The notes below the pieces were generated by a model. That model saw nothing but the letters and a program-made list of their open reading frames with translations, had not been told where the DNA came from and made no database searches. From CBDBIG01 sp965205845 [NCBI: bacterium] (GTDB lineage: Bacteria > SAR324), in the NCBI GenBank assembly GCA_965205845.1, contig CBDBIG010000005.1, positions 248,001 to 312,000 of the forward strand: a stretch of DNA of 64,000 nucleotides. Reading direction: 5' to 3'. This document shows positions 4,911 to 52,600 of this stretch, piece by piece (the stretch's first letter is position 1; each line of letters begins with the position of its first letter). The position numbers and the translations under genes are program-made.

Positions 4911-6122
4911 ATGTTACCCGAGGTACAATACGTACTCAGTAGTTTATGGTTGTTTATTTGTTCGGCACTTGTCATGTGGATGGCAGCAGGCTTTTCGATG
5001 TTAGAAGCGGGCTTGGTCAATGCTAGAAACAACGTGGCTATTTTAACCAAAAATATCGTCTTGTATGCGGTGGCTTGCGTGATGTACTACGCCGTGGGTT
5101 ATGCCTTCATGTATAGTGAGGCAGGGGGCTGGTTTGCAGGTTGGGGTTGGGGAATTCAAGGGGTGTATGATGGCACTGAACGTGGTGAGATGGCCAACTT
5201 TTTCTTTCAAGTGGTGTTTGTTGCCACGGCCGCATCCATCGTATCAGGGGCGGTGGCAGGGCGGATGCGCTTTTGGCCTTTTATGCTGTTCATTGTCATT
5301 TTAACGGGGGTTGTTTACCCCATACAAGGGCATTGGAGTTGGGGTGGCAGTGCACTTAACGGACTGCTTGCGGGCTTTAGTGACTATGCAGGTTCCACTG
5401 TGGTGCACAGCGTGGGGGGCTGGGCGGCTTTGGCGGGGGTAATTATAGTGGGTCCTCGCCTTAAAAAATATGGCGTAGATGGCCAGATTCACCCTTTGCC
5501 TGGTTCAAACCTAACCTTGGCAGCCTTGGGTACGTTTATTTTGTGGATGGGTTGGTTGGGGTTTAACGGGGGTTCTCAACTCACCCTTAATGGCAAGGCC
5601 GATGCTTTGGCTATTGGCTTGGTGCTGGTTAACACCAACATGGCGGCGGCCGGTGGCGTGCTGTCGAGCCTTGTGCTTACCCAATGGATTCACAAAAAAA
5701 TTGACCTCACCATGGTGCTCAACGGTGCGCTTTCGGGATTGGTAGCCATTACGGCAGGGCCTGACTACCCCCCTGTATGGCTGGCAGTTGGCATTGGTGC
5801 GGTGGGTGGAATAATTACCGTTTTTTGCGTACCCTTGCTCGATCGCCTGCGGCTTGACGACCCTGTTGGTGCCATTTCGGTGCACCTGGCCAATGGCATT
5901 TGGGGAACACTGGCGGTAGGTTTGTTTCATCCCACAACCACGTTGTGGACACAGGCAAAGGGTGTTTTGGTTGTGGGGGCTTTTACCTTTGGGATTTCCC
6001 TTGGGCTGTGGTGGCTTATTAAACGATGCATTGGGCTTAGGGTAGCACCCAAGGCAGAGATAGAGGGTATCGATGTGAATGAGTTTGGCATGGAAGCCTA
6101 TCCTGACTTTATCCATCGTTAA
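4911..6122 (+). CDS. amt: ammonium channel Amt
   Basis: Inner-membrane Amt/AmtB channel that conducts ammonia/ammonium in a trimer. The start at 4911 (MLPEVQYVLSS) gives 403 aa, the size of a mature Amt, with an AAGGAG about 16 nt upstream. Eleven membrane segments are apparent. Signature parts are MWMAAGFSMLEAGLVNARNN, the first pore histidine in GSTVVHSVGGWAAL and the second in DDPVGAISVHLANGIWG. The cytoplasmic tail (EGIDVNEFGMEAYPDF) has the usual form. The partner PII gene glnK, normally adjacent, is absent; the next gene downstream is an acyl-CoA dehydrogenase after a gap of about 95 bases. Transport of ammonium is secure; regulation by PII is inferred from the family. Confidence 0.93.
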   Translation: MLPEVQYVLSSLWLFICSALVMWMAAGFSMLEAGLVNARNNVAILTKNIVLYAVACVMYYAVGYAFMYSEAGGWFAGWGWGIQGVYDGTERGEMANFFFQVVFVATAASIVSGAVAGRMRFWPFMLFIVILTGVVYPIQGHWSWGGSALNGLLAGFSDYAGSTVVHSVGGWAALAGVIIVGPRLKKYGVDGQIHPLPGSNLTLAALGTFILWMGWLGFNGGSQLTLNGKADALAIGLVLVNTNMAAAGGVLSSLVLTQWIHKKIDLTMVLNGALSGLVAITAGPDYPPVWLAVGIGAVGGIITVFCVPLLDRLRLDDPVGAISVHLANGIWGTLAVGLFHPTTTLWTQAKGVLVVGAFTFGISLGLWWLIKRCIGLRVAPKAEIEGIDVNEFGMEAYPDFIHR

Positions 6123-9547: not shown

Positions 9548-11683
9548 CTAATTCACTTCCAAGGTACGGCGGGCAGTAATCCCCTCGACCGCGTTGAGGT
9601 GCATTAAAATACGCTGCACCTGTGCGTAGTTGTCCACCATTAAGGTGATTTGTTGTGTATACACCCCGTTACCAGAGTGGATCCGCCCACTGGTCACTTC
9701 TGCTTTTTCTGCCTCGATGATTGAGATGAGCCCTAGCATTTCGCGCATGGAAGTTTTGCTTTGGATTTCAATGTGTACGGGGGAGAGATTTCTTTGGACA
9801 TCAGACCACCTGACATTGACCACCCGCTCTGGATGCAAAGCCTTGCGTACCAGGCCCATGCAGTTTTGATGGTGCACCGAAACCCCCCTCCCACGGCTAA
9901 TCAAGCCCACCACAGGATCACCATTTACGGGAGCGCAGCAGCGCGCCAAACGCGTGGGGACACCTTCTACCCCATCCACAATTAAGACCTCTGGCGAATA
10001 TGCCTTAGCCGTGGGCTCTTTTTTTACAGTGGGTTCCTTGGTCAAAAACCCTTTGGTATGCGGCAGCATAATCTCAAGTTCTTTGGCCAAGCGGATGAAA
10101 GATTGTTTGAAATGGATCCTCTTAAACCCTTCGGCAAGATAAATATCCTCAACAGTGTGTAGGTTGTTTCGCCTCATCCATTCTTGTACGGGCGGTTTTT
10201 CTAACAATGTTTCCAACTTGATTTCAAGAGGGCGCAGTATTTTTTGAATGGCCACCTTGCCTACATGGATGGATCGGTCGCTTTCTTGTTGGCGCAGCGC
10301 AGCACGAATGCGATGACGCGCCTTGGCACTGACTACAAAATTGAGCCATTCGCGTTTAGGGTTTTGGTGGTTATTGGTTAAAATTTCCACCACACTCCCA
10401 TTTTTTAAGGGCGTGCGAATCGATACCATCCGCGTATCCATTTTGGCACCAACGCAGGTCTCCCCGAGTTTGGTGTGAATGGCATAGGCAAAATCGACAG
10501 CGGTGGCCTTAGGCGGCAATTTCACAACCTCACCTTTAGGTGAAAATAAAAATAACTGGTCTGCAATCAACTCTCGGCCAATTAAATCCACCGAATCGTT
10601 AAAGGCAAGACCTTCTGGCAAATGCTCTAACAAACTACGAAACCATTTTAAGGACGCCACTTCTTGAGCATCTGCCAGGTTTCCATGCTTATAACCAAAA
10701 TGGGCAGCAACCCCCAATTCGGCTTCGCGGTGCATGAGACGGGTACGAATTTGAATTTCAAAACGCCCTCCTTGGTTGTCACTGATGGTCGTGTGCAAGC
10801 TCCGATAACCGTTGGCTTTAGGTAAGGCGATATAATCTTTAAAACGCCCTGGCACAGGCACCCCATCGGCGTGAATGATACCCAGAGCACGGTAACATTC
10901 TTCCTCGCTATCTACAATAACCCTTGCGGCGATCAGGTCATAAATGCGTTCGATGGGGGATTGGCGACGCTGCATTTTAATATGCAACGAGCGTAATCCC
11001 TTTAAACGCCCAGAAACTTCAGCATCAATCGCTTGTGCTTTTAGCAATCTAGAAAGACGCATTTTAAGCCAGTCTAAATGCGCTTGACCTTCCTCAGTGA
11101 GATGTTTTACCTTCGCCTGCAGGCTTTGGTACGCCGTGGGTTCCAGAACGGCAAAACACAGATCTTCCATTTCAGAATGGAGAAAATCAATGCCTAAGCG
11201 ATGGGCGATGGGGGCATAAATCGTTCGGGTTTCTTGGGCCATCTCCACGCAGTTGTCTGTGTGCGTTAGCTGAGATTGTCGCAAAGATTGGAGGCGTTCG
11301 GCAGAGAGGATGAGCAATACGCGGGGATCATTCACCGAGGCCATAATCATTTGCCGCATGTGCTCTGCGCGTGACACCCCGGCACCCAAAAAAGAGGCTC
11401 TGCCTATCTTTTGCGTTTCCGCCATCAGCCCACTGGCCTGAGAGCCCAAAATCTGCTCAACCTGTTGCAGGCGTTCGACGGAGTTTTGCATCATGGAAGT
11501 TTGTAACAAGCCCACCGCTTGTTCTAACGCGCCCATATTCAAGCATTCCAAAATATCGCGCACACCCAGCCCATGAAGAAGATGCGTTTTGGCATCTTCC
11601 CCATGCCACCGACGTAACAACGCAACAGCTTGCTGTATTTCAGGGGCGATGTTTTGGTTTAGGTCCTCTAAACGATTTTCCAT
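9548..11683 (-). CDS. RelA/SpoT-family (p)ppGpp synthetase, hydrolase site lost
   Basis: Stringent-response alarmone enzyme of 711 aa with the standard order: N-terminal hydrolase-like domain (about 20-185), synthetase (210-330), TGS (370-435), zinc-finger/RIS region with a CC pair (RLARCCAPV) and C-terminal ACT. The synthetase looks active: GRFKDYIALPKANGYRSLHT, then EIQIRT and AELGVAAHFGYK. The RFKD form is the Rel/SpoT type, not the EFDD of RelA. The hydrolase domain has no HD dyad (the place of LLHDVVED reads LLQTSMMQNS), and the later hydrolase motif is degenerate (SAERLQSLRQ). It is therefore probably synthesis-only. It lies downstream of gmk on the same strand with a gap of under 200 bases. 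Confidence 0.92.
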   Translation of the reverse strand: MENRLEDLNQNIAPEIQQAVALLRRWHGEDAKTHLLHGLGVRDILECLNMGALEQAVGLLQTSMMQNSVERLQQVEQILGSQASGLMAETQKIGRASFLGAGVSRAEHMRQMIMASVNDPRVLLILSAERLQSLRQSQLTHTDNCVEMAQETRTIYAPIAHRLGIDFLHSEMEDLCFAVLEPTAYQSLQAKVKHLTEEGQAHLDWLKMRLSRLLKAQAIDAEVSGRLKGLRSLHIKMQRRQSPIERIYDLIAARVIVDSEEECYRALGIIHADGVPVPGRFKDYIALPKANGYRSLHTTISDNQGGRFEIQIRTRLMHREAELGVAAHFGYKHGNLADAQEVASLKWFRSLLEHLPEGLAFNDSVDLIGRELIADQLFLFSPKGEVVKLPPKATAVDFAYAIHTKLGETCVGAKMDTRMVSIRTPLKNGSVVEILTNNHQNPKREWLNFVVSAKARHRIRAALRQQESDRSIHVGKVAIQKILRPLEIKLETLLEKPPVQEWMRRNNLHTVEDIYLAEGFKRIHFKQSFIRLAKELEIMLPHTKGFLTKEPTVKKEPTAKAYSPEVLIVDGVEGVPTRLARCCAPVNGDPVVGLISRGRGVSVHHQNCMGLVRKALHPERVVNVRWSDVQRNLSPVHIEIQSKTSMREMLGLISIIEAEKAEVTSGRIHSGNGVYTQQITLMVDNYAQVQRILMHLNAVEGITARRTLEVN

Positions 11684-11871: not shown

Positions 11872-12693
11872 TTACGCAGTGCGTTGAGCATTTTGATAGG
11901 TTTCGTGTACAACATGGTCCAAATCCACATTCGCAAACCCTTCGGCCATTTTTTTGCGGATTTGCAGCAAAACATCATGGGTTAGAGCTTCACGCACCCC
12001 AACATCCAACTGGTTGAGGGTAGCATTACTCTCGAGCATTTCTAAGGCATAAAGCACGGCACGATCAAGGATGGGAACCCCACACTCCTCGTGTCTCGAT
12101 GCAAAAATCACATCCTTGCGTTCTTCTATCCGAATCAGATCGACAATTTGATGAATGGCTTCATCCACCTCTTCATTCACAACCACTTGGTCATATTCTT
12201 TCATATGGTTCATTTCCTGCCGCGAACTGGCGGTGCGAATTTCAAAAGAGCGATCATTCTCTGTGCCCCGATCGCGCAGGCGGCGTTCTAGTTCTTCAAA
12301 ACTTGGCGGCGCAATAAATACCGAGAAAGCACCTGAAAAGCGTGAGGTCACCTGACTCATGCCTTGGTGATCCATGTCGAGTAGGACGTGAATCTTGCGA
12401 TTGCGTAAAATATAATCGATTTCGGAGCGCGAGGTACCGTACAGATTGTTAAACAAGTGCGCCCATTCAATAAAATCCTCTTGGTCAATCATTTTCAAAA
12501 AAGAGTCTTTATTCACAAAGTAATAATCTTTGCCGTTAATCTCACCGGGGCGCGGGTGTCGACTGGTAACCGAGGTACTCAGGCGAAGATTCTCTACTTG
12601 TTGGAGCAGCCCGCGAATAATCGTGGATTTCCCCACCCCACTGGGGCCAGAAATAATGAACACACGGGGATAGAACTGTTGTATTCCACTCAT
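11872..12693 (-). CDS. gmk: guanylate kinase with C-terminal extension
   Basis: Phosphorylates GMP to GDP with ATP. The P-loop is GPSGVGKST (about residues 15-23). The GMP-binding segment (SVTSRHPRPGEINGKDYYFV) and the YGTSRSEID and LDMDHQG motifs are present, as is the lid (RRLRDRGTENDRSFEIR). The kinase core ends near residue 205, where most bacterial enzymes stop. This protein continues for some 65 residues (from about RHEECGVPILDRA) with a helical, acidic extension that I cannot assign. Pairing with the (p)ppGpp synthetase gene is a common arrangement and makes functional sense, since (p)ppGpp is made from GDP/GTP and inhibits many guanylate kinases. Confidence 0.93.
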   Translation of the reverse strand: MSGIQQFYPRVFIISGPSGVGKSTIIRGLLQQVENLRLSTSVTSRHPRPGEINGKDYYFVNKDSFLKMIDQEDFIEWAHLFNNLYGTSRSEIDYILRNRKIHVLLDMDHQGMSQVTSRFSGAFSVFIAPPSFEELERRLRDRGTENDRSFEIRTASSRQEMNHMKEYDQVVVNEEVDEAIHQIVDLIRIEERKDVIFASRHEECGVPILDRAVLYALEMLESNATLNQLDVGVREALTHDVLLQIRKKMAEGFANVDLDHVVHETYQNAQRTA

Positions 12694-12826: not shown

Positions 12827-15403
12827 TTAGCGAAATCGTTGGCGCGGTGTAAGGCCTTTTTGATGCAAGACCAAGTCATAATCCGCTCGCTTTTTTAAAT
12901 CGATAAGCACTTGATAGGCCTCACTAATTCTGCGACTCATCCGCTCGGCTTCTTCATACACCCATGGGTATTTGGATTGCACATGATGATCTGGATGATA
13001 CTGCTTAAGTAGGCGGTGATACGCTTTTTTTACCTCGTCGGGACCCGCAGTAAACGCTACCTGCAATATCTCGTAATGGCTTAAGCCTTCCATGGGAGTG
13101 TTTTGAACTGTGCGTTGGCTACCCATTTGTTGCTTTGAAACACGGGATTGAGGCTGCTCCTTTGTTTCGCGATCTCGTTTCCAGTCTCGAGCCTTGGAAT
13201 TGCCTTGCTTTTGCTTGGTTTGTTGTGCGCTGCGTTGGGTATTGGCGGATACACCATGGCCACTACCCGTTGAATTTTTGACGGTTGTGACCGTTGACAG
13301 CCTTTGAAGTTGCTGTTCAATCATTTTGAGTCGTTGGTGTATTTGACCAATGCTCTCTGGCTGGTGGCTTAGCACGTGGCTTAATGCGTTCAATTCCGCT
13401 TGCCATTGTAACCAAGTACCGCGCAGCTGGCGTTGTTTGTTATTTTTTTCGAACAGCCCCTGTTCAATACGTTCTTGCAGAGATTCTAGCAAATTGCGTA
13501 CAACCTGGACACGTATGGGGTCCGTTTTTGGCGTAACACGCGAAAAAAGATTTTTAGTGGACTGGAATGCACCCTTCCTTAGGCCTTTTACCCCCTCTCC
13601 CGGGGGTGGCGTACCCCCAGGATCATGCCCATGGCGGCGGCGCCATCCATAGTAGCCAATCCCCATGGCCAATGCCAGCAAGGCACCCAACACCACAGCA
13701 ATCCAATCACGCCAGCTGCGCCTTTTTTGGAATTGCAGTTGCTGCTGCAACGCTAAAGCTTGGCTGTTTTGTTTATCTTGGGTTAAAACCTCTGCCAGTA
13801 ATGCCTTGGCAGAAAAATCATCCCCCATGTGTAATTTTTCTTGTACTTGTTCAAGGATTAGATCTTGATTGATTTTTTCTTCTGCTTGGGCAATCCCTTT
13901 TTTAATCTGCTTGGGTAATAAACTATCCAAGGTTAATTTTTGTGTAAGCAGTTTTAAGGCTTCGCGTGGTTTCCCCGTTTTAGTCAGTTCTGCCGCTTGG
14001 GTAAGGGTCGCTTTTTCCTGGCGGAGGCGAATCGCCTTCAATGCCGCCAAGGCTTCTGGTTGATTGGGTTGTAATTGTAGAATTTCCGAGGCTGTTTTTT
14101 GTGCAGCAGAAAAATCACCCCCATTGAGATGCCCACGTAAAATACGCTTTAGCCCTTGCAATGACATCCTTTGCGTTTTTGCTTCAAGCCCGTTGAGCCA
14201 TCGTTTTTTTTGTGTCGCCGTCGCGATTCGCTCATCCAAATGGCGCACATAACTGCGGGCAAGCTCAGTAGAACCCAAGGTCCGCAAACGCGTTAAATAA
14301 CGTAAGGGGCTGGGCTGTTGATTGAGCAGTAGTAACGTGGCGTGCTTTTCCTTTCCAACCAATACATAGCTGCTACTAGGGCTAATGGCGAGCAATTGAA
14401 CAGAATTCGCTCGAATACGCTTGGCTTGCACGCGGCCAGTTTGGCTTAAAAACACCATCTCACCGTGAGAATTTTCGCTTTTGCCAAGCAGTACAAGCCC
14501 ATCGTTTGCAATAGGCTGAATGTGGATTGGTGCAAACTTTTTATCCAAATGAGACAGCACTTTCGCTGGATCTGGAATTAGGTTTTCTCTCCAGCGAATC
14601 AGGGTGAAACTGCGATCTAGCGAGAGCTTTTCTTGTGTGCCAAACCAAGCAGCCACGACGGGAAAGCGATGCCCAGACAGGCGTATCGAGGGAGCGTTTT
14701 CTTGCACCGGGGTTTGCACAAGGTGCTTTTCTTCATTGGTTTGCACAAGGACCAACGGTGTCTTGACATCTAGCCTCGGGTTTAGATTGGTAATATTCCC
14801 TGTATGGGATTTGTAAAAAGGCTTTTGCCCAGCATTTTTACCCGCTTGTGTGGAGCGCTTATAGAGTTTATGTTTTTGCGACCACACCACCATGCCTGCG
14901 GATGCTGTAAAAGCCGCTGTGCCCACGGGCCCTTGTGTTTGATGCATAGGCATTCGCCATAGGCGAAAACGCTCAGGGAGCGTTTTGTTACTTCGCAAAT
15001 TGGCCAAAGAAACCTCCCACAAAGCCAACGCTTTGGTACCAGTGACCAACAACAAATCTCGGCTGGGTGCAAAGCGCAGCGTGACGTTACTCCCCACCTG
15101 TGTTTTAATGCTCCCCAACAAGGCTTGGCTTGGGCGATCGTACAACTGAATATGCGTACTTTTTTTGCCTGCTGTGGCCGTGGCAATGAGTGATTCATCG
15201 GCATTGATTGCCACGGCCTGTAGGGTGCTTTTACTGGAAAAGGTCGCAACTTTCTGCCAAGCAAGCACGGGGGTTTTGCCCGCATTATCCGCGGAGACCT
15301 GATTGTGTAATATAATGTAGGTCAAAAACAACACGCTACACACCAGGCTTTTAAGCCTATATATGGCAAACCCGTTAGACTTGCTTTTGCAAAACCATGC
15401 CAT
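12827..15403 (-). CDS. membrane protein: outer propeller-like region, TM, coiled coil, C-terminal J domain
   Basis: An 858-aa protein starting at ATG 15403 with GGGAAG just upstream and overlapping the end of trmB by 29 bases (likely coupled). Residues about 18-39 form a signal-anchor or signal peptide. About 45-400 contain beta-propeller-like repeats of WD40 type (for example LQAVAINADESLIATA, LRFAPSRDLLLVTG, LLAISPSSSYVLVG). About 430-560 are helical TPR-like repeats. Residues 567-587 are a clear membrane segment followed by RRRH. A coiled coil and a Gln/Lys/Ser-rich linker lead to a J domain (about 775-848) with an intact HPD in KQYHPDHH. By the positive-inside rule the propeller is periplasmic and the J domain cytoplasmic, where it could recruit DnaK to the membrane. 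The domain combination is new to me. Confidence 0.8.
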   Translation of the reverse strand: MAWFCKSKSNGFAIYRLKSLVCSVLFLTYIILHNQVSADNAGKTPVLAWQKVATFSSKSTLQAVAINADESLIATATAGKKSTHIQLYDRPSQALLGSIKTQVGSNVTLRFAPSRDLLLVTGTKALALWEVSLANLRSNKTLPERFRLWRMPMHQTQGPVGTAAFTASAGMVVWSQKHKLYKRSTQAGKNAGQKPFYKSHTGNITNLNPRLDVKTPLVLVQTNEEKHLVQTPVQENAPSIRLSGHRFPVVAAWFGTQEKLSLDRSFTLIRWRENLIPDPAKVLSHLDKKFAPIHIQPIANDGLVLLGKSENSHGEMVFLSQTGRVQAKRIRANSVQLLAISPSSSYVLVGKEKHATLLLLNQQPSPLRYLTRLRTLGSTELARSYVRHLDERIATATQKKRWLNGLEAKTQRMSLQGLKRILRGHLNGGDFSAAQKTASEILQLQPNQPEALAALKAIRLRQEKATLTQAAELTKTGKPREALKLLTQKLTLDSLLPKQIKKGIAQAEEKINQDLILEQVQEKLHMGDDFSAKALLAEVLTQDKQNSQALALQQQLQFQKRRSWRDWIAVVLGALLALAMGIGYYGWRRRHGHDPGGTPPPGEGVKGLRKGAFQSTKNLFSRVTPKTDPIRVQVVRNLLESLQERIEQGLFEKNNKQRQLRGTWLQWQAELNALSHVLSHQPESIGQIHQRLKMIEQQLQRLSTVTTVKNSTGSGHGVSANTQRSAQQTKQKQGNSKARDWKRDRETKEQPQSRVSKQQMGSQRTVQNTPMEGLSHYEILQVAFTAGPDEVKKAYHRLLKQYHPDHHVQSKYPWVYEEAERMSRRISEAYQVLIDLKKRADYDLVLHQKGLTPRQRFR

Positions 15404-16016
15404 ACACTTCCCGTTGCTTTTGTTGAAAAAGCATTCCAAATTCGCTGTATACACCGCCAATTGGGGTTGCTTGCCTGTTAATATCGTTACTAAAAAAAAC
15501 CGTTTCAAAAGTGTTTTGCCTATGTACCGCGCTAAGGAAATGCAAGAATTGTCCCGAATAGTCTGTTTTAACGCATAACAAACCCCCAGATTTTAGGACT
15601 CTTCCAGCCTTTTTCAGCAATGCCCCATTGAGCAAGCGCTTATCCCAATCACGCCACTTTGGCCATGGCTCTGGAAATAGTATATACAGTCGGTCGACCG
15701 TTTGCGGGGGAAAATACGTGTCAAAGCTCTCTGCACGTTCATGCAAGAACCAAACGTTGTGTAACCGCAACCGCTCGGCTTTTTGAGCACTGCGTACAAG
15801 GCGTTTGTAACGCAATTCAAAACCCACAAAACGATGTTCGACAAATGCCTCAGCATGCTGTAGCAAAAAGCCTCCTGCACCACAGCCTAAATCAACCCAT
15901 AATTGATCGTAAGGTTTGCTCTGCGCCATGCATTGGGTTAAAAGGCGGGCGTTTGGGTAGGGCAGCAAATGCTTAGGATGCAATGCAATTTGGCTTTTGT
16001 AAGGATTAATCTGCAT
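15375..16016 (-). CDS. trmB: tRNA (guanine-N7-)-methyltransferase
   Basis: SAM-dependent enzyme that methylates G46 in the tRNA variable loop. The 213-aa sequence has the SAM motif WVDLGCGAGGFLLQHA, the acidic FVGFE loop and the TrmB signature FPEPWPKWRDWDKRL (usually FPDPWPK.RH.KRR), followed by LLCVKTDYS. The length is typical. Its stop lies inside the start of the J-domain membrane protein, so the two are probably one transcript. The next gene upstream, another J-domain protein, is divergent. Confidence 0.93.
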   Translation of the reverse strand: MQINPYKSQIALHPKHLLPYPNARLLTQCMAQSKPYDQLWVDLGCGAGGFLLQHAEAFVEHRFVGFELRYKRLVRSAQKAERLRLHNVWFLHERAESFDTYFPPQTVDRLYILFPEPWPKWRDWDKRLLNGALLKKAGRVLKSGGLLCVKTDYSGQFLHFLSAVHRQNTFETVFFSNDINRQATPIGGVYSEFGMLFQQKQREVYGMVLQKQV

Positions 16017-16190
16017 TAAAACTAAAAAAATTTGCTTTTTGCATGTTACTCATTTTGGCTTGACAAACCGTGTTTATTGCCTATGTTCAACCTTACACAG
16101 TAGAATGATGCCATTATTGCCTTGACCTTAAAACCAGCATCAACCCTTTTTGTGTTTTTTACCGTGCCAACCCGTTTTTCCGCACAAAAT

Positions 16191-17153
16191 ATGGAAAGAG
16201 ACTATTACCACATTTTGCAAGTTGCCCCTCAAGCGTCTTTTGAGGTGATTAAAAGTGCTTACCGCGCTTTGCTAAAAGATGGTGCCATGCACCCCGATTT
16301 GGGGGGCAATCCCAAAGTTGCCCAGGCGCTCAATGAGGCATATCAAGTGCTAAGCGACCCTGCAACACGCAGCGAGTACGACGCCATGCTGAAAAAAGCC
16401 GCACGTATTCCCAACATGCCACCCAACAGGCCAAAGCGTAACCCAAACCAACTGCTTTGCCCACACTGCAAAGCACCCAATGCCATCGAATCATGGGATC
16501 ACGCACCCAAACAACGCTGCCACGCGTGCAAGCGGCGTTTACTTCCAGTATTTAAAACCGAGGGTAGTGAGGTTAAGAGCGCACACCGCCTAGGGATTTT
16601 TCTATTTGAAAAAGGGATGGTCGAGCGCGCATTACGCGAGTTTGAAATGGCCGTGCATTTACGCCCTAAATCGGACACACTGCACTATTGGAAAGGGCGT
16701 TGTTTATACAGCCGACATCTATTTAAAAAAGCCAAGTTTAGCTTCTCCGCCGCCGCGCAATTGCAACCCGCCAAGTTTCATTACCATTTCTGGCTGGGGC
16801 AAGCGTGTTTTGCCATCCACCATAAACACGAGGCCATTCTAGCATTTCAAAAAGCCCTCACCAAGCGCCCACATCACGCAGGTACCATGCTACGCTTGGC
16901 CAACTGCCACTACGAACTGGGAAATGGCGATAAAGCGAAAGCATTGCTCCAAAAAGGGCTGATGCGTCACCCCGATCAAATACAAATGTATGTATTGCTT
17001 GGTTTTATTTTGATTCGCCAAGATGATCATGCCAATGCCTTAAAGGTGTTTTCGCGTCTGCAACAACTCTTTCCCCGCCATGCCCTTGCCCAAAAATACA
17101 CCACCTTGCTTTCTTCTTCTTCACAAAAAGCAGAAGAAATCCCCCATCATTAA
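16191..17153 (+). CDS. J domain - zinc ribbon - TPR protein
   Basis: A cytoplasmic protein of 320 aa from ATG 16191 (MERDYYHILQV); an upstream in-frame TTG would add 23 hydrophobic residues of doubtful meaning. A J domain (residues 1-68) has HPD in AMHPDLGG. A small CPHC...CHAC zinc ribbon (about 88-112) follows, then several TPR units (about 130-300), each with the alternating W/LG/Y/A/P pattern. Class III J proteins with TPRs usually target Hsp70 to particular clients. It is divergent from trmB and is the second J-domain gene within 3 kb. It converges on crcB, with the two stop codons overlapping. Confidence 0.85.
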   Translation: MERDYYHILQVAPQASFEVIKSAYRALLKDGAMHPDLGGNPKVAQALNEAYQVLSDPATRSEYDAMLKKAARIPNMPPNRPKRNPNQLLCPHCKAPNAIESWDHAPKQRCHACKRRLLPVFKTEGSEVKSAHRLGIFLFEKGMVERALREFEMAVHLRPKSDTLHYWKGRCLYSRHLFKKAKFSFSAAAQLQPAKFHYHFWLGQACFAIHHKHEAILAFQKALTKRPHHAGTMLRLANCHYELGNGDKAKALLQKGLMRHPDQIQMYVLLGFILIRQDDHANALKVFSRLQQLFPRHALAQKYTTLLSSSSQKAEEIPHH

Positions 17154-17944: not shown

Positions 17945-20545
17945 TTAATCTGGAGGGTATACAATCACACGATTCCTTCCATGTCCTTTCGCATGATACA
18001 TCGCTTTGTCAGCATTTTGAATCAATTCCTCAGAAGACGTGCTATCTTCTGGAAACGCGGCCACACCCAAACTCGCAGAAATAAGACCCAAAGGCTGTTG
18101 TTCCCCTTCTGGCATATCAATTGCGCTAATGGCTTTGCGTACTTTTTCTGCAATTACACGCGCCATGGACTTAGGTGTTTCGGGCAGTACAATCACAAAT
18201 TCCTCCCCTCCATAGCGGGCTGCCAAATCTGAAGAGCGCACAGAATCTACCATGACGCGAGACAAGATACGCAACAAAGCATCTCCACGTTGGTGACCGT
18301 GGTTGTCGTTAAAGTGTTTAAAATTGTCCACGTCGAGCATAATGAGCGAGCAGGGTTTTCCTGTCTGTTCGGAATACGCCGTTTGGATATCCAGAAAGTC
18401 GTCAAAATATTTGCGATTGGCCAACTTGGTTAAGCCATCGGTATGGGCTTGTTTGTTTGCCATATTCATGGTGTGGTGCAGCGAGATTTCATGCTTATGC
18501 CGTTCAACCATGGTACGTATTTTAAAATGTACATCAGAAATGGAATAGGGCTTGGGCAAAAAATCGTTCACTCCACGGCGCATGGCAATGTCACGCTCGG
18601 CAAAATCTTGATAAAGCGTGCTAATGGAAAGCACGGGACAAATGTGGTGTCGATTTTGCGCCAAAGATGTCAGCAAACGGTGACTATGCCAGCCTTTTTC
18701 GGCGATTAAGGGGTCAATAATGACCAAATCGGGGACAAAAACCTCATAGCGAGAAAGCAGTTCATAAGGTGTTGCGGCAACAATACAATGCGAATCGGGC
18801 CATATATTTTTTGCCAAACCGCTCAAAATCAATTGGTCCGCCTCGGATTCGTCATAAATCAAAATACGAGACGGAATTTCGAGGGCATCCTCATGATCTA
18901 TCACGGGCAAGCGCAACACAATGTGTGCGTTATCGCCCTGAGTGGAAAAGTCCAAAACACCATGATTTTGCAACACATTACGCCGCACCAAAGGAATCGC
19001 AACTTGCCGTGTGGAGTTCATGAGCAAACTTTTTTTCATGGCCTCTTTGTCATCGAGCGCCACACCCCGATAAGAAATGCGTATATCGACAAACTGTGCC
19101 TCTTTCTCCTGAACCACCTTAACCCGCACAAAGCTCCTGGGATGAGAAATAGCCAAGGCTTCTTCCACCAAGATACCAATGGTTTTTTCTAACTGGCCCG
19201 ATTTCCAGTGTACGCGAATGGGGGAAAGATCTGTGGTTAATTTTAAGCGACTCTTACCTGCGGTTTGCCAATGTTCCATGGCGGTAAGAATGGTTTCGAT
19301 CACTTCTTGTAGGTCAATGTTTTGTTCGTTTAAATGAATAAATTCGGCCTGGAGCTCGTTCAAGTGGTCGATGTTATCGGAGACCAGCTTGAGCACACGC
19401 AAATGATGCTGCATTTCTTTTAGCACCTCTTGGACCTCGTCTGCTTGCCCCTTTATTTTGGCACGAATAATCTCAGCCAGATTAAGAACTTGCACCACTG
19501 GTGGGCGCATTTCAGCGGCAATGAGCCCTAGCATTTCACTTTTTACCTGATCGCTACGCTGTAATTCTTGATAGGTACTCTCTAAATCCTGCAAAGCACG
19601 TTGTATCGCTTGGGTTTTATGGGCAATATCCTTTGCTTGTTTATTTTGAACGGAAACATCCATAAAAATGTATGCGGCGGCGATCATGACATTTTTTGCA
19701 TCGCGTACCGAAGAAGCGGTAACACGATAATGCAATGGGCTGGTTTTGGCATGCCACTCTCCTTGCCATGATGCATCCGCAAGAATGCTCTCAAGACGAA
19801 ATGGACCCACATCAAAATGGGCGACAAGAGAGGTAATATTCATGGCTTTGCCAGGTGAAGCACCTACGCGTTTTAAAAAAGACTGCGCTGCTCGGTTTAG
19901 CTTAATGAACCCGCCGCTTGGAGTGGTTAAAATAATAGGAATGGGTGCCGTTTCTACGGTTTGAGAGTGCAGCAAGAGCTCACGAAGGGTATCCTCAGTG
20001 CTTAAACGGCCTTCTTGGATGCCACCTTGCATCTCACGCACGGCACCTTCGTAGCACTCGCGCTGTTGATTGCTTTTTATCAATTTCGTTGCCAAAGAAG
20101 CAGCAATGATGCGGTAGACCTCACGCGAGATAGAGGTGGGGAGGTTATCCGCTTTTTCTTCAATGTCCCTAAATACACGGGCGGGGATCTCAACCATTTG
20201 CACATCGGTTTCTGCAAGTACATTTGCCGTACGAAAGGCAGCAAATATCCTCATTTCCCCTACAATATCGCCGGGGTTATGCAGGCGAGAAACCAAATTC
20301 CCATCAGAGATTATTTGGATCGATCCTGAAATAAGAATAAACAGGCTACTGTCTTTCCCGCCTTGTTGAATAAGCATCTCCTTCGCGGCAATGCGCAACA
20401 AACGACCCGTTTTAAGGATTTTCCTCAAGACATCCTGATCGATCGCAGCAAATGCGGCGCAATGCACGATGTCATCTGCCACTGACTGGAGCAACACAGC
20501 ATCTTTTGCCAGTGAAATAGCTTTTGTTTGGCTCATAGCGGACAA
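17945..20545 (-). CDS. cNMP-binding/PAS/pseudo-histidine-kinase/REC/GGDEF signalling protein
   Basis: An 866-aa soluble signalling protein. In order: a cyclic-nucleotide-binding-like domain (about 25-150, GSIQIISDGN, NPGDIVGEM), a PAS-like domain (200-300), a histidine-kinase-like dimerisation and ATPase region (325-550), a receiver-like domain (560-680, VPDLVIIDP) and a C-terminal GGDEF domain (700-863). The GGEEF active site lies at 779-783, preceded five residues earlier by an RSSD inhibitory site, so it should make cyclic-di-GMP under feedback control. The kinase dimerisation helix reads IAAEMRPP, with Ala where the phosphorylated His should be, and the ATPase boxes are hard to find. It appears to be a sensing scaffold with a diguanylate cyclase output. 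No partner is adjacent. Confidence 0.87.
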   Translation of the reverse strand: MSAMSQTKAISLAKDAVLLQSVADDIVHCAAFAAIDQDVLRKILKTGRLLRIAAKEMLIQQGGKDSSLFILISGSIQIISDGNLVSRLHNPGDIVGEMRIFAAFRTANVLAETDVQMVEIPARVFRDIEEKADNLPTSISREVYRIIAASLATKLIKSNQQRECYEGAVREMQGGIQEGRLSTEDTLRELLLHSQTVETAPIPIILTTPSGGFIKLNRAAQSFLKRVGASPGKAMNITSLVAHFDVGPFRLESILADASWQGEWHAKTSPLHYRVTASSVRDAKNVMIAAAYIFMDVSVQNKQAKDIAHKTQAIQRALQDLESTYQELQRSDQVKSEMLGLIAAEMRPPVVQVLNLAEIIRAKIKGQADEVQEVLKEMQHHLRVLKLVSDNIDHLNELQAEFIHLNEQNIDLQEVIETILTAMEHWQTAGKSRLKLTTDLSPIRVHWKSGQLEKTIGILVEEALAISHPRSFVRVKVVQEKEAQFVDIRISYRGVALDDKEAMKKSLLMNSTRQVAIPLVRRNVLQNHGVLDFSTQGDNAHIVLRLPVIDHEDALEIPSRILIYDESEADQLILSGLAKNIWPDSHCIVAATPYELLSRYEVFVPDLVIIDPLIAEKGWHSHRLLTSLAQNRHHICPVLSISTLYQDFAERDIAMRRGVNDFLPKPYSISDVHFKIRTMVERHKHEISLHHTMNMANKQAHTDGLTKLANRKYFDDFLDIQTAYSEQTGKPCSLIMLDVDNFKHFNDNHGHQRGDALLRILSRVMVDSVRSSDLAARYGGEEFVIVLPETPKSMARVIAEKVRKAISAIDMPEGEQQPLGLISASLGVAAFPEDSTSSEELIQNADKAMYHAKGHGRNRVIVYPPD

Positions 20546-47884: not shown

Positions 47885-49726
47885 TTAGTCGAGGCGTTTG
47901 AGTTCTTGCAAGGCAGCACTGCCCATCACTTCATCGGCTAGGGGTTGGGTAAGCAGGCCTAGGGCATCCATTTCTTTTTTTAACATGCTAGGATCTTGGC
48001 CTTTTGCGGCCTTTTCCACTTTTTGAACCTGCACCTGCATGGCGTGCTGTGCATTGGTTGATAAGATGGTTTGCGCCTGGGGCCACGCTTTTTGAACGCC
48101 ACGCAACACCGCTTGGGCTGTGTTTCTAAACTCCACCAATTGGCGGTGATGAAAATCCTCTTCGGCAGAGGAAAGTGCCTCTTCCATCATGTGATCAATT
48201 TCATCGTTGGTAAGCCCGTGAGAGGGGGTGACCTCAATTTTTGCTTGGGTTTGGCTGCGTTCTTCAAAAGCACTCACAGCCAGCAAGCCGTTGGCATTCA
48301 CCGTAAAAGAGACGCGAACGCGCGGCAAACCTGCAGGCATCAAGGGGAGGCCTTTGAGTTTAAAGCGTCCTAGATGACGGCAGTTTTCAACCAGTTCGCG
48401 TTCACCTTGATAAATGTTAATGTCGACACCCGTTTGGTTGTCGACATAGGTTGAAAAAAGTTCTTGGGTATTGGCGGGAATCGTGGTATTGCCCATAATC
48501 AATTTATGAAACGAACCGCCTAGGGTTTCAATCCCCAAGGCCAAAGGTACCACGTCTAGCAGCAGAAAATCGCGCTGCTGACCTGCCAAAATGGCGCCTT
48601 GCACAGCAGCACCCACGGCCACCACCTCGTCAGGATCAATGGATAAGTTTGCAGGCCTGCCAAAAAAAGCCTCGACCTGACGCCGTACCAAAGGCAGACG
48701 CGTCGACCCGCCCACTAACACCACCTCGTCGACCTCACGGACCTGTTTTTGGGCTATTTGCAAGGCCTTACGGCATGAAGCCAAGGTGCGCTCCACCATG
48801 GGGGTAAGCAAGGTGTCCATTTGTGTGGCACTCAATATTCCATTCACCTCTTCGCCACGGGCAAAGGTCATTTTCCAGGGAACTTCATCGGTGTGGCTCA
48901 ATTGAATTTTAAGCCATTCGGCGGTTTTTTTAAGCAGTTGGGTGGCCATTGGGGTGTTGAGACTTAAGCTCGGGTGCTGGCGAACCGCATCTTTTTTTAG
49001 GGCACTGGCAATCAATAGGTCGGCATCGTCACCACCCAGGTGGGTGTCACCATGGGTGGCCAGTACACGAAATACTTTTTCTTTAAGAGACAAAATGGAC
49101 ACATCAAAAGTGCCCCCCCCGAGGTCGTACACGGCAATTAAGCCACGCTGTTTTGTGTCTAAGCCATAGGCTAAAGCGGCGGCGGTGGGTTCGCTCACAA
49201 TGCGCACAGCGTTCAAGCCTGCCAGTTTGGCAGCATCGCGAGTCGCCTGGCGTTGGGCATCGTCAAAATAGGCAGGTGTGGTAATAACCGCTTTGCTTAT
49301 GGGTTGTTTTAGTGCCATTTCGGCGCGGGTTTTTACGCCTTTTAAAATTTCTGCACAAAGTTCTTGGGGGGTAAAGCACTCCTCTCCAATACGCACCCGC
49401 ACCATATCGCGCAGCCCCGCTTCTACTTGGTAGGGCAAGGTTTTGATCTCGTCTTTTAGTTCGGCATCACTGCGTCCAAGCAGGCGTTTTGCAGAGTAAA
49501 TAACATGTTCGGGGTGATGTGTACGCTGCCTTTTGGCTTCCTCACCTACCACCCACGCGCCGTTGTTGCGCCAGAGCACAGAAGGCAAAATAGGCGAGGC
49601 TTGAGGGTGTGGGCGCAGTGCTTGCGCTTGCGCGGAGCGCACCACGGCAGCAAGGCTGTTGGTGGTACCAAGGTCAATCCCAATAATGTATTCTGCGCTG
49701 TCATGGGTTGTGGAAGACGAGGACAT
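47885..49726 (-). CDS. hscA: Fe-S cluster assembly chaperone HscA
   Basis: Specialised Hsp70 that helps release Fe-S clusters from IscU. 613 aa from MSSSSTTHD. ATPase motifs are [31 protein letters not shown], and [14 protein letters not shown], followed by the substrate-binding domain ([14 protein letters not shown]). The position directly after hscB and downstream of iscU distinguishes it from DnaK. The ferredoxin gene that normally follows is missing; the next downstream region holds repeats. Confidence 0.94.
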
Positions 49727-49809
49727 GGGGTTCTTATCAAGGGTAAACGGGCAAAAAGGAGAAAGCAAAGGAGCGATTGGTGATGGCAATGTTCGGGGAC
49801 AGAAAACTT

Positions 49810-50397
49810 TTATGGGTCAACCAACATCGCTAAAATACGGCGCAAATAGCGCTCTACATTCAAGGTTTCGCAAATTTTTTGTAAAACACCCCCTAACATA
49901 GGCACATTAGGTTGCAGGGGGCTTATGCTTGAAAATAGCATGCCACGTTCCGCGACACACTGCTGGCAACTTTGTTGAACCTGCTGTTTCAAAGCCAATT
50001 TAGTCTTAGGGTTGGTTTGCGCCTTTTCTACCTCCTCTTGAAGGAGCAGCATTTTTTCTAAAAACCCTTGGGGCAGAGCACTGTGATTGAGCTTTTGTCC
50101 TTGGCTAAGCAGTTCAAGCAAATGGACTGAGCGGCTGTTTTCAGCGGCAAGCACTTGATAGGCACGGTTAATCGCAGCACTGTTTTCAAGAGCCTTGGCT
50201 TTTTCTTCCTCGCTGGTCAACGGCAAAAAATCAGGGTGTGTCGCTAAGCATTGCGCTTCATAAGCCTTGTCCAAAACCTTGCTATCGACACGATACGAGA
50301 GAGGCAGGTGAAAATAGTGAAAAAAGTTGACAACTTGCGGCGTTTTGTCAAGGTGCACGCCATGCGAAGCCGGGTTTTTGGCAGGGGAGGTGGTCAT
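49810..50397 (-). CDS. hscB: Fe-S cluster assembly co-chaperone HscB
   Basis: J-domain partner of HscA that brings IscU to it. 195 aa. The J domain (about residues 24-95) has HPD in LATHPDFLPL; most HscB proteins have HPDKF here. The C-terminal three-helix IscU-binding domain (about 100-190) has the typical LLQEEVEKA. About 20 N-terminal residues are variable. It is 83 bases upstream of hscA. Confidence 0.9.
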   Translation of the reverse strand: MTTSPAKNPASHGVHLDKTPQVVNFFHYFHLPLSYRVDSKVLDKAYEAQCLATHPDFLPLTSEEEKAKALENSAAINRAYQVLAAENSRSVHLLELLSQGQKLNHSALPQGFLEKMLLLQEEVEKAQTNPKTKLALKQQVQQSCQQCVAERGMLFSSISPLQPNVPMLGGVLQKICETLNVERYLRRILAMLVDP

Positions 50398-50805
50398 AGA
50401 TTATACATCTGATAAGGAGGGAGAAAATTTGCAGTGCTCTTTATTTCTAAGGGGTATGATTTTGCAATGGCTTTGATTCTCAGTAGGTACGATAGAAATA
50501 TTGCAAAGGTCAGGCTTAGCCACGCGATGAACCTTGGATAATAGGATACGCTGAGGGGGGTTTTAGGGTAACGTGACCCTTCCCTTTTTTCAGCTTGAAT
50601 TGGGGAGGATCACGAAAATCCCATGCTTATCCTTCCTGATTGCATACAACGCCCATGTGCTAACAACCCGCCATTGCCAAAACAGGCTGGCACACCGCCG
50701 CAGAAGGGGGTATTTGCCAACAAAAAACCGCTATCTCCCTACCAAGCAAAAAAAATAGGGAGAGACCCAAGCAAACTTTCGCAAAGCAGGTGCCATAAAC
50801 CCTTT
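50398..50805. other. spacer where iscA is usually found
   Basis: About 410 bases between iscU and hscB. No IscA-like frame exists on the minus strand. An inverted repeat TCTCCCTA/TAGGGAGA (around 50734-50763) lies after iscU; its A/T tract is in the loop, so it is not a standard terminator. The hscB start has AAGGAGG-like sequence (near 50414) on the plus strand only, so the promoter arrangement is unclear. Confidence 0.5.
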
Positions 50806-51189
50806 TTATTGGCTAACCACCTTCTTTTTATAATCTGCAATCGCCGATTTAATGGCGTCCTCCGCCAAGACAGAGCAATGAATCTTAACGGGTGGCAAAG
50901 AGAGTTCTTCCACAATGTGGGTATTGGAGATCGAAAGCGCTTCATTCAAGGTTTTGCCCTTAACCCACTCGGTGGCCAAGCTCGAACTGGCAATGGCACT
51001 CCCGCAGCCAAAGGTTTTAAAGCGTGCATCCGTAATGCGTCCCTCTTCAACCTTAATTTGCAGTTTCATTACATCGCCACATTCCGGGGCTCCCACCACC
51101 GCCGTCCCCACAGCATTGTCCTCTTTGCTTAGCGAGCCCACATTGCGCGGATTATTGTAGTGATCTAGTACTTTTTCGCTGTATGCCAT
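50806..51189 (-). CDS. iscU: Fe-S cluster scaffold IscU
   Basis: The scaffold on which 2Fe-2S clusters form. 127 aa beginning MAYSEKVLDHYNNPRNVGS. The three cluster cysteines are in PECGDVMKL, TFGCGSAIASSS and KIHCSV; the HscA-binding LPPVK motif is present (SLPPVKIHC). The start and length are standard. About 200 bases separate it from iscS upstream. Confidence 0.97.
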   Translation of the reverse strand: MAYSEKVLDHYNNPRNVGSLSKEDNAVGTAVVGAPECGDVMKLQIKVEEGRITDARFKTFGCGSAIASSSLATEWVKGKTLNEALSISNTHIVEELSLPPVKIHCSVLAEDAIKSAIADYKKKVVSQ

Positions 51190-51385
51190 AGTGTTATGTA
51201 TTACCTATCTCGATTAAAAATAATGTGTCCTGCAAAATAAATTTTAAAAAAGGGAGCGAGATGGTTGCACTGTGTGCCGTCAACACCCCACCACGCGGCA
51301 ACCAAACACGGGCAGATAGCCCACACCTGGTTTTTTTTCCTACCCATAAAACCTTGCTTAGTCAAGCAGCCTTCCAAGAACTTGT

Positions 51386-52600
51386 TTAGTGAGCATTCCA
51401 TTGCACCTGGTTTAGGTCAATGCCCTCTTTGGCCATTTCGTACAAAGGAGACATTTCACGCAACCGCGATACCTCTTCAACCACCCTTCGAATGGCATAG
51501 TCCACTTCTTCCTTAGTGGTGAAGCGCCCCACGCCAAAGCGAATCGAAGAGTGGGCCAGTTCGTCGCCCACGCCCAAAGCACGGAGCACATAAGAAGGCT
51601 CGAGACTGGCAGAGGTACAGGCAGATCCCGAAGATACGGCCAGTTCCTTGATGCCCATAATCAAGCTTTCGCCTTCAACAAAAGCAAAACTAAGGTTTAA
51701 ATTGCCATGGTGACGTTTTTCAGGATGACCATTCAAGTATACCTCTTCCAACTCACGTACAATCCCTTGGTGCAAGCGCTCACGCATCCCCAAAATACGC
51801 TGGTGCTCAGCTGCACCGTCAGCCATTACCAGCTCAGCTGCCTTGCCAAAACCCACAATGCCAGGCACGTTCAGGGTGCCAGAACGCATGCCGCGTTCAT
51901 GTCCACCCCCATGCATAATGGGACTGACACGCACACGGGGCTTGCGGCGACGTACATAAAAAGCCCCCACGCCTTTTGGCCCATACATTTTGTGGGCGGT
52001 AAAAGAGGCCATGTCAATGTTCATCGCATCGACATCAAGTTTCAAGGCACCCACCCCCTGGGTGGCATCGGTATGAAACCACACCCCGCGTTCACGGGTA
52101 ATTTCACCAATCTCCTTTAAAGGGTTTAGCGTCCCAATCTCGTTATTGGCAGCCATTAAAGACACCAAAATGGTGCGATCGGTAATGGCGTCACGCAGCT
52201 GGTCAAGGTCAATCCTGCCGTGCTTGTCGACCTTTAAGTAGGTTACCTCAAAGCCTTTGCTTTCAAGGTAGTGGCAGGGATCAAGCACCGCCTTATGCTC
52301 GATGGGACTGGTGATGATATGGTTGCCCTTTTGGCGCAAAAACTCGGCAGCCCCCAAAATGGCCAAATTGTCTGATTCCGTGGCCCCGCTGGTAAACAAA
52401 ATCTCCTTGGCACTGGCACCAATTAACTGCCCCACGCTTGTGCGTGCTTTTTCCACAAATTCCTCCGCACGCCAGCCAAAATAATGATTACGGCTTGCAG
52501 CGTTGCCATAATCTTCTTCAAAAGCGGGCAACATCGTCTCCACCACCCGCGGATCAACCCGAGTCGTGGCATGGTTATCTAAGTAAATAGGGGTTTTCAT
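51386..52600 (-). CDS. iscS: cysteine desulfurase IscS
   Basis: PLP enzyme that supplies sulfur for Fe-S clusters and thiolated tRNA. 404 aa. The PLP-lysine is in [12 protein letters not shown], the cofactor His in [11 protein letters not shown], and the persulfide Cys in [14 protein letters not shown]. The C-terminal tail [17 protein letters not shown] is the usual IscU-contact region. It is the first gene of the cluster here, as iscR is absent; upstream is a repeat array. Confidence 0.96.

What the first reader, a model, noticed from the sequence alone, without database searches (positions are those of the whole stretch)
12827..15403. Membrane J-domain protein with an outer beta-propeller-like domain
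One chain combines a signal-anchor, WD40-like repeats, TPR-like helices, a membrane helix, a coiled coil and a C-terminal J domain with intact HPD. If the topology is right, a periplasmic sensing surface is tied to cytoplasmic recruitment of Hsp70. I know no described system with this order. Its start overlaps trmB, so expression is coupled to tRNA modification.
Basis: partly seen in the sequence, partly recalled or inferred. Interest (0 to 1): 0.75.

Follow-up and report, generated by a model that had tools for sequence, protein, structure and literature searches.

The report
Membrane co-chaperone with periplasmic propeller domain
A bacterial gene encodes a membrane protein that probably carries a propeller-shaped domain outside the inner membrane and an Hsp70-recruiting J domain inside it, an arrangement that resembles the known co-chaperone DjlA but with a much larger outer part.

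Summary
The ORF at 12827-15403 (-) is one 858-aa chain: N-terminal signal sequence (about 1-38), WD40-type beta-propeller (about 45-373), short TPR-like helical region (about 400-560), membrane helix (567-586), coiled coil (about 655-705), basic low-complexity tether (706-772), C-terminal J domain (773-858) with intact HPD (803-805). The J domain is certain. The propeller is supported by sequence profiles (0 of 1000 shuffles score as high) but not by a confident structure model, because no relatives were found to align. [quoted passage not shown] That is the layout of DjlA, a known membrane DnaK co-chaperone, except that DjlA's periplasmic part is short and it has a TerB domain, not detected here. 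My reading: a DjlA-like, membrane-tethered recruiter of cytoplasmic DnaK whose outer domain binds an envelope partner. Sensing, as opposed to positioning, is not shown. The 29-bp overlap with trmB is real, but 'coupled to tRNA modification' is over-read: the gene sits in a same-strand housekeeping run trmB-J-gmk-relA. Novelty: new variant of a known kind.

The parts
12827..15403 (-). 858-aa membrane J-domain protein, whole gene
15290..15403 (-). residues 1-38: N-terminal signal sequence, basic n-region (K6, K8, R16, K18), hydrophobic 19-32, possible cleavage VSA|D after residue 38
   Evidence: hydrophobic peak; cleavage site read by eye with the -3,-1 rule (recalled)
14285..15271 (-). residues 45-373: WD40-type beta-propeller, about seven blades of 42-55 residues by eye (57-373); predicted periplasmic
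   Evidence: blade self-similarity; strand pattern in low-confidence models
13724..14206 (-). residues 400-560: TPR-like helical hairpins, one repeat (419-455) over the Pfam cut-off; predicted periplasmic
   Evidence: helices with 10-residue mean pLDDT 70-88 over residues 410-489
13646..13705 (-). residues 567-586: transmembrane helix, followed by WRRRHGH
13289..13441 (-). residues 655-705: coiled-coil-like heptad region
13088..13288 (-). residues 706-772: Q/K/R/S-rich basic low-complexity tether
   Evidence: sequence; residues 587-772 have pI 11.25
12830..13087 (-). residues 773-858: J domain
12989..12997 (-). HPD motif, residues 803-805
   Evidence: invariant columns
15375..16016 (-). trmB-like gene; its last 29 bp overlap the start of the J-protein gene
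   Evidence: Pfam PF02390 E=2.6e-31; TIGR00091 105.0 bits vs cut-off 112.65
11872..12693 (-). guanylate kinase gmk, downstream on the same strand
   Evidence: TIGR03263 E=2.4e-64, over cut-off
9548..11683 (-). relA/spoT, downstream on the same strand
   Evidence: TIGR00691 E=7.5e-153, over cut-off

Best explanation
It is a membrane-tethered Hsp70 co-chaperone that works like DjlA. The Sec machinery exports the N-terminal half; a WD40-type propeller plus a short TPR stalk sit in the periplasm and bind one or more envelope proteins; a single helix stops transfer; a coiled coil probably pairs two chains; and a long basic flexible tether lets the J domain recruit ATP-bound cytoplasmic DnaK and trigger its ATPase next to that envelope partner, helping a trans-envelope complex to assemble or come apart. 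Shown here: the gene, the J domain with HPD, the hydrophobic helix, and a propeller signature by profile. Inferred: export, topology, DnaK as partner, dimerisation, and what the propeller binds. Whether binding outside changes J-domain activity inside is left open.
For: J domain: Pfam E=5.8e-16, 47% identity to E. coli DnaJ, HPD aligned in all six J domains compared. Propeller. Membrane helix and N-terminal hydrophobic segment. Basic outer half (pI 10.6), as for DctP 9.9, OppA-like 10.1 and MsrP 9.9, which are exported kinds of protein (recalled); weak, because TrmB (9.6) and the J-TPR protein (9.9) are basic too. The order outer part - one helix - spacer - C-terminal J is that of DjlA, a bona fide DnaK co-chaperone with a short periplasmic N-terminus (PMC11709261, passages). 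The loop between HPD and helix III is DjlA-like in length: a one-residue gap against DjlA, six residues against DnaJ. Caulobacter DjlA, in an HPD-dependent way, boosts AcrAB-NodT pump function, and its overexpression lowers AcrA aggregation (PMC10754441, section 12): a precedent for envelope clients.
Against: No relatives were found, so no conservation supports the function. AlphaFold models without an alignment are low confidence (pLDDT 44 and 40), and no PDB fold match reaches E<=0.001. No PDB sequence match to residues 1-758: 3 chains at E<=10, none a propeller. Profiles of one WD repeat separated poorly or not from shuffles (-0.1 bits, top of 500 shuffles 7.8; 4.4 bits, 1 of 1000 shuffles as high). 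Charge beside the membrane helix is not decisive. The only Hsp70 among the window ORFs I scanned is an HscA; no dnaK was seen, and the rest of the genome is not held.
Confidence: 0.6

Rival explanations
1. Anchor, not sensor (a sub-reading of the best explanation): the propeller and TPR part binds a fixed envelope site (cell wall, outer-membrane or polar protein) only to position the J domain; nothing is signalled across the membrane.
For: A single helix and a 67-residue low-complexity tether (sequence) would transmit conformational change poorly (inference); DjlA fused to MalF transmembrane domains still activated Rcs (PMC11709261, passage).
Against: None found here; whether outer binding changes inner activity is untested.
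Confidence: 0.45
2. Whole protein on the cytoplasmic side: the N-terminal hydrophobic stretch does not export the chain, and the propeller, TPR and J domain all act in the cytoplasm at the membrane.
For: WD40 and TPR domains are often cytoplasmic (recalled). The charge beside the inner helix is ambiguous.
Against: A basic n-region, a hydrophobic core and a VSA cleavage site, then about 520 residues and a second hydrophobic helix, fit export followed by stop-transfer; basic pI like three exported-type proteins, weakly. Absence of cysteine after residue 22 tells nothing, since it holds on both sides of the helix.
Confidence: 0.12
3. Membrane-coat-like protein: a beta-propeller followed by an alpha-solenoid, as in the coat-like proteins of Gemmata, shaping or lining a membrane, with a J domain for Hsp70-driven uncoating.
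For: Propeller then helical hairpins is the defining order of that architecture (PMC2799638, passages). Some weak fold matches are ciliary and SEA-complex subunits.
Against: The helical part is short (about 160 residues; the three modelled Gemmata solenoid fragments are 188, 273 and 277), the fold is not confirmed, and the words DnaJ and transmembrane do not occur in that paper's main text.
Confidence: 0.05
4. The first half is another beta-rich fold, not a propeller; the protein is still a membrane J-domain protein.
For: Profile matches fall mainly at the two ends; residues about 190-230 match nothing, and about 140-280 are the lowest-confidence part of both models (block means 23-33). Single-repeat profiles fail or nearly fail.
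Against: All 4 Pfam families at E<=10 are propellers; all 13 versions of the 7-blade profile score it above every one of 1000 shuffles; blade-to-blade similarity exceeds shuffles in 498 of 500 (blade ends picked by eye).
Confidence: 0.15

Closest known systems
DjlA, membrane DnaK co-chaperone (E. coli, Caulobacter)
   Same: N-terminus outside (predicted here), one membrane helix, spacer, C-terminal cytoplasmic J domain; long loop between HPD and helix III.
   Different: DjlA's periplasmic part is short and a TerB domain lies between helix and J domain (PMC11709261, passage); here the outer part is about 530 residues with propeller and TPR, and no TerB is detected. The J domain is closer to that of DnaJ than of DjlA (58.9 vs 32.7 bits).
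DnaJ/CbpA class A/B J-domain proteins
   Same: J domain with HPD.
   Different: The J domain is at the C-terminus of a membrane protein; no DnaJ client-binding or zinc-finger family appeared in the Pfam scan.
P58IPK/DNAJC3, ER-lumen TPR-J protein
   Same: TPR then C-terminal J domain, signal sequence (recalled; its TPR part is among weak fold matches).
   Different: Both parts on the same side of the membrane, no membrane helix, no propeller (recalled).
Membrane-coat-like proteins of Planctomycetes
   Same: Propeller followed by helical hairpins (PMC2799638, passages).
   Different: No DnaJ or transmembrane mentioned in that paper's main text; longer solenoid.

Membership tests
J-domain protein (class C) | J domain with HPD motif, recognised by family model above cut-off | tested here: met
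   PF00226 58.8 bits vs cut-off 27.8; HPD 803-805
J-domain protein (class C) | Stimulates Hsp70 ATPase | not testable with these tools
   needs a biochemical assay
DjlA | One membrane helix with J domain at the cytoplasmic C-terminus | tested here: inconclusive
   helix 567-586 and C-terminal J found; sidedness predicted, not shown
DjlA | TerB domain between helix and J domain | tested here: not met
   no TerB family in the Pfam lists at E<=1 (whole protein, 8 families) or E<=10 (residues 584-858, 13 families); HMMER's filters drop most weak matches
DjlA | Score above the DjlA equivalog cut-off | tested here: not met
   PRK09430 32.3 bits vs cut-off 162
WD40-type beta-propeller | Above-cut-off match to a propeller family | tested here: not met
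   best PF23409 20.1 bits vs 88.2
WD40-type beta-propeller | Similarity to WD40 domains beyond chance | tested here: met
   21.3 bits; 0 of 1000 shuffles as high; best of 20 control proteins 1.5; holds without the query-selected row (18.2 bits). Single-repeat profiles did not separate well
WD40-type beta-propeller | Confident 6-8-bladed fold | tested here: inconclusive
   models at pLDDT 44 and 40; no fold match at E<=0.001
Membrane-coat-like architecture | N-terminal propeller followed by alpha-solenoid | tested here: inconclusive
   order fits, but solenoid short and propeller not structurally confirmed

The most novel reading that the evidence does not exclude
A periplasmic WD40 propeller acts as a true ligand or partner sensor whose occupancy, passed through the TPR stalk and coiled coil, switches recruitment of cytoplasmic DnaK: a transmembrane chaperone receptor in a bacterium.
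Probability: 0.25. Interest if true: 0.75.

Novelty: new variant of a known kind. Interest (0 to 1): 0.45.

Why it matters
Bacterial Hsp70 is usually thought of as a soluble cytoplasmic machine (recalled). [quoted passage not shown] A DjlA-like protein with a large outer recognition domain would give a concrete handle on how Hsp70 can be aimed at particular envelope complexes from outside the membrane.

Tried and rejected
Searches for relatives: viral contigs with the whole protein, genome contigs with residues 1-758 and, to find the organism, with RelA: none. Plasmids with the whole protein: 87 records; the 20 listed rows all start at residue 726 or later, i.e. the J-domain end; 67 were not listed. 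Plasmids with residues 1-758 at E<=10: 1 record, Streptomyces, E=2, which proved to lie in a WD40 region. The genome and viral scans use six exact 8-residue peptides, so they find only close relatives; their silence is no evidence that the architecture is rare.

Placing the organism: for dihydrolipoyl dehydrogenase the top listed plasmid matches are alphaproteobacterial (47.6%, capped at 5000 records), but for RelA the listed rows run from 31.5 to 34.0% identity, and the highest bit score is Acetoanaerobium (387) against 358-360 for the Azospirillum rows ranked first to third. The lineage stays unplaced.

Propeller tests that did not help: a single-repeat profile from one Streptomyces protein, a single-repeat profile from 12 proteins (1 of 1000 shuffles as high), PDB sequence search, AlphaFold without alignment. 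TPR1 vs TPR2: 1962 of 2000 shuffles score as high; TPR2 vs TPR3: 174 of 2000; TPR1 vs TPR3: 23 of 2000.

Defence role: PADLOC gives 0 families at E<=0.01; the 4 PHROGs matches at E<0.05 all lie in the J domain. Promoter-like and terminator-like sites are about as frequent as in shuffles (6 vs mean 9.3; 13 vs mean 11.6), so operon limits were not set from them.

Literature: ten full-text searches. Searches found no paper; the others I saw as listings (20 of 232, 25 of 88, 10 of 53, 10 of 17, 12 of 24, 1 of 2, all 14, the single one). No listed title or abstract start described this order. I read passages of PMC11709261, PMC2799638 and PMC7159879, and the abstract and section 12 of PMC10754441. 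In PMC7159879 a DnaJ domain fused to FNIII repeats occurs in HSP70-containing conflict systems (passage), a different architecture.

Full report
What is there. The ORF on the minus strand at 12827-15403 starts at ATG 15403 and encodes 858 residues. Codon usage agrees with 16 other genes of the window in all five segments tested and disagrees in the other five frames, so this is one gene and not a chance or frameshifted fusion. An in-frame TTG 105 bp upstream gives a longer frame, but that stretch (which lies inside trmB) has first-position GC of 0.31, outside the 0.51-0.62 of those genes.

J domain. Residues 776-843 match Pfam DnaJ at 58.8 bits (cut-off 27.8). The region matches 46 distinct solved sequences at E<=0.001, is 47% identical to E. 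coli DnaJ over 72 positions (58.9 bits) and weaker against DjlA (32.7 bits). Yet the loop between HPD and helix III is long, aligning to DjlA with a one-residue gap and to DnaJ with a six-residue gap. HPD lies at residues 803-805 and is invariant in the six J domains aligned.

First half. Scanned alone, residues 40-400 match four Pfam families at E<=10, all WD40-type propellers (best E=5.1e-4, well below the curated cut-off). Reversed and three shuffled versions match none. A profile of 12 seven-repeat WD40 domains from bacterial plasmids scores 21.3 bits; none of 1000 shuffles reaches this (759 gave any score, top 6.0), the reversed sequence scores -0.1, and the best of 20 other window proteins (9 gave any score) 1.5. 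Without the Streptomyces row that had been found with the query, the score is 18.2 bits, 0 of 1000; leaving out in addition each of the other 11 rows in turn gives 16.2-21.2 bits, always 0 of 1000 (top shuffle up to 7.9, best control up to 4.0). In each profile the first match starts at residues 54-61 and ends at 131-138 (173 in one), and a weaker second match starts at 233-317 and ends at 351-355. Seven segments of 42-55 residues can be read by eye; their mutual similarity is reached by 2 of 500 shuffles, but I picked the boundaries. Against this: profiles of a single repeat separated poorly (-0.1 bits against a top shuffle of 7.8; 4.4 bits, 1 of 1000 as high), PDB sequences give nothing, and AlphaFold without an alignment is low confidence (pLDDT 44 and 40). 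The fold search from the N-terminal model has no match at E<=0.001 and whole-length superpositions are poor (rmsd mostly 15-21 A), but many of the 50 rows shown are propeller proteins by name or by recall, with five local matches of 69-79 columns at 2.3-2.7 A to coronins and to ribosome chains that I take to be RACK1 (recalled). I take the propeller as likely, about 85%.

Helical part and C-terminal half. Residues 419-455 match TPR_14 over cut-off when the region is scanned alone; in the whole-protein scan they were below it. The whole-chain model gives helices with block means of pLDDT 70-88 over residues 410-489, its best part. A membrane helix follows at 567-586. Residues 655-705 show a heptad pattern (0 of 3000 shuffles; chosen after viewing; 12, 321 and 5 of 3000 for three other segments tried), and 706-772 is a basic low-complexity tether.

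Topology. The N-terminus has a basic n-region, a hydrophobic core of about 14 residues and VSA|D, which reads as a cleavable signal peptide (by eye; no signal-peptide program was on hand). Export followed by stop-transfer at 567-586 leaves the propeller and TPR outside and the J domain inside. Charges beside the inner helix do not decide (+3 before and +2 after in 15-residue windows, +3 and +4 in 30-residue windows). The outer half is basic (pI 10.6), as are three exported-type proteins of the window, but so are TrmB and the J-TPR protein.

Surroundings. Same strand, in order: trmB-like (15375-16016), the J protein overlapping it by 29 bp, gmk (11872-12693) and relA/spoT (9548-11683). A second J-domain protein with TPRs is divergent at 16191-17153. 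The only Hsp70 among the window ORFs I scanned is an HscA in an isc cluster, which normally works with HscB (recalled), so a DnaK elsewhere in the genome is the presumed partner. No genome is held for the window.

How it likely works. The nearest working model is DjlA: N-terminus in the periplasm, one helix, a spacer, C-terminal J domain, needing DnaK and GrpE to activate the Rcs relay (PMC11709261, passages). In Caulobacter it supports efflux-pump function in an HPD-dependent way, and its pull-downs hold outer-membrane proteins and pump components (PMC10754441, section 12). The present protein fits the same logic with a large outer recognition domain. It is not a DjlA by membership: no TerB is detected and the DjlA model score is 32.3 against a cut-off of 162. 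Whether the outer domain senses or only anchors is open.

Verdict. The sensing claim is plausible but unproven, and the link to tRNA modification is not supported beyond gene overlap. New variant of a known kind.

Noticed in passing
16191-17153 (+): Second J-domain protein, divergent from trmB: N-terminal J domain, a CPHC...CHAC zinc-ribbon-like stretch (by eye), then several TPRs; the listed TTG start at 16122 is probably too early, an ATG is at 16191.
   Followed up: partly
11872-12693 (-): Guanylate kinase with about 85 C-terminal residues beyond the kinase match (which ends at residue 188 of 273), unidentified.
   Followed up: no
47885-52600 (-): isc cluster: iscS, iscU, a protein with an HscB-like place and HPD motif (49810-50397; no NCBIfam match at E<=1e-20), and hscA.
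   Followed up: partly
17945-20545 (-): 866-aa protein joining a CRP-like N-terminal part, a histidine-kinase-like middle and a PleD-like diguanylate cyclase end.
   Followed up: no
15375-16016 (-): TrmB-like protein scores just under the NCBIfam TrmB cut-off (105.0 vs 112.65 bits): a diverged member.
   Followed up: no
9548-11683 (-): RelA/SpoT: none of the 15 plasmid rows listed (of 68 records) exceeds 34.0% identity, and the genome scan with it found nothing, which may mean a lineage far from well-sampled bacteria.
   Followed up: partly
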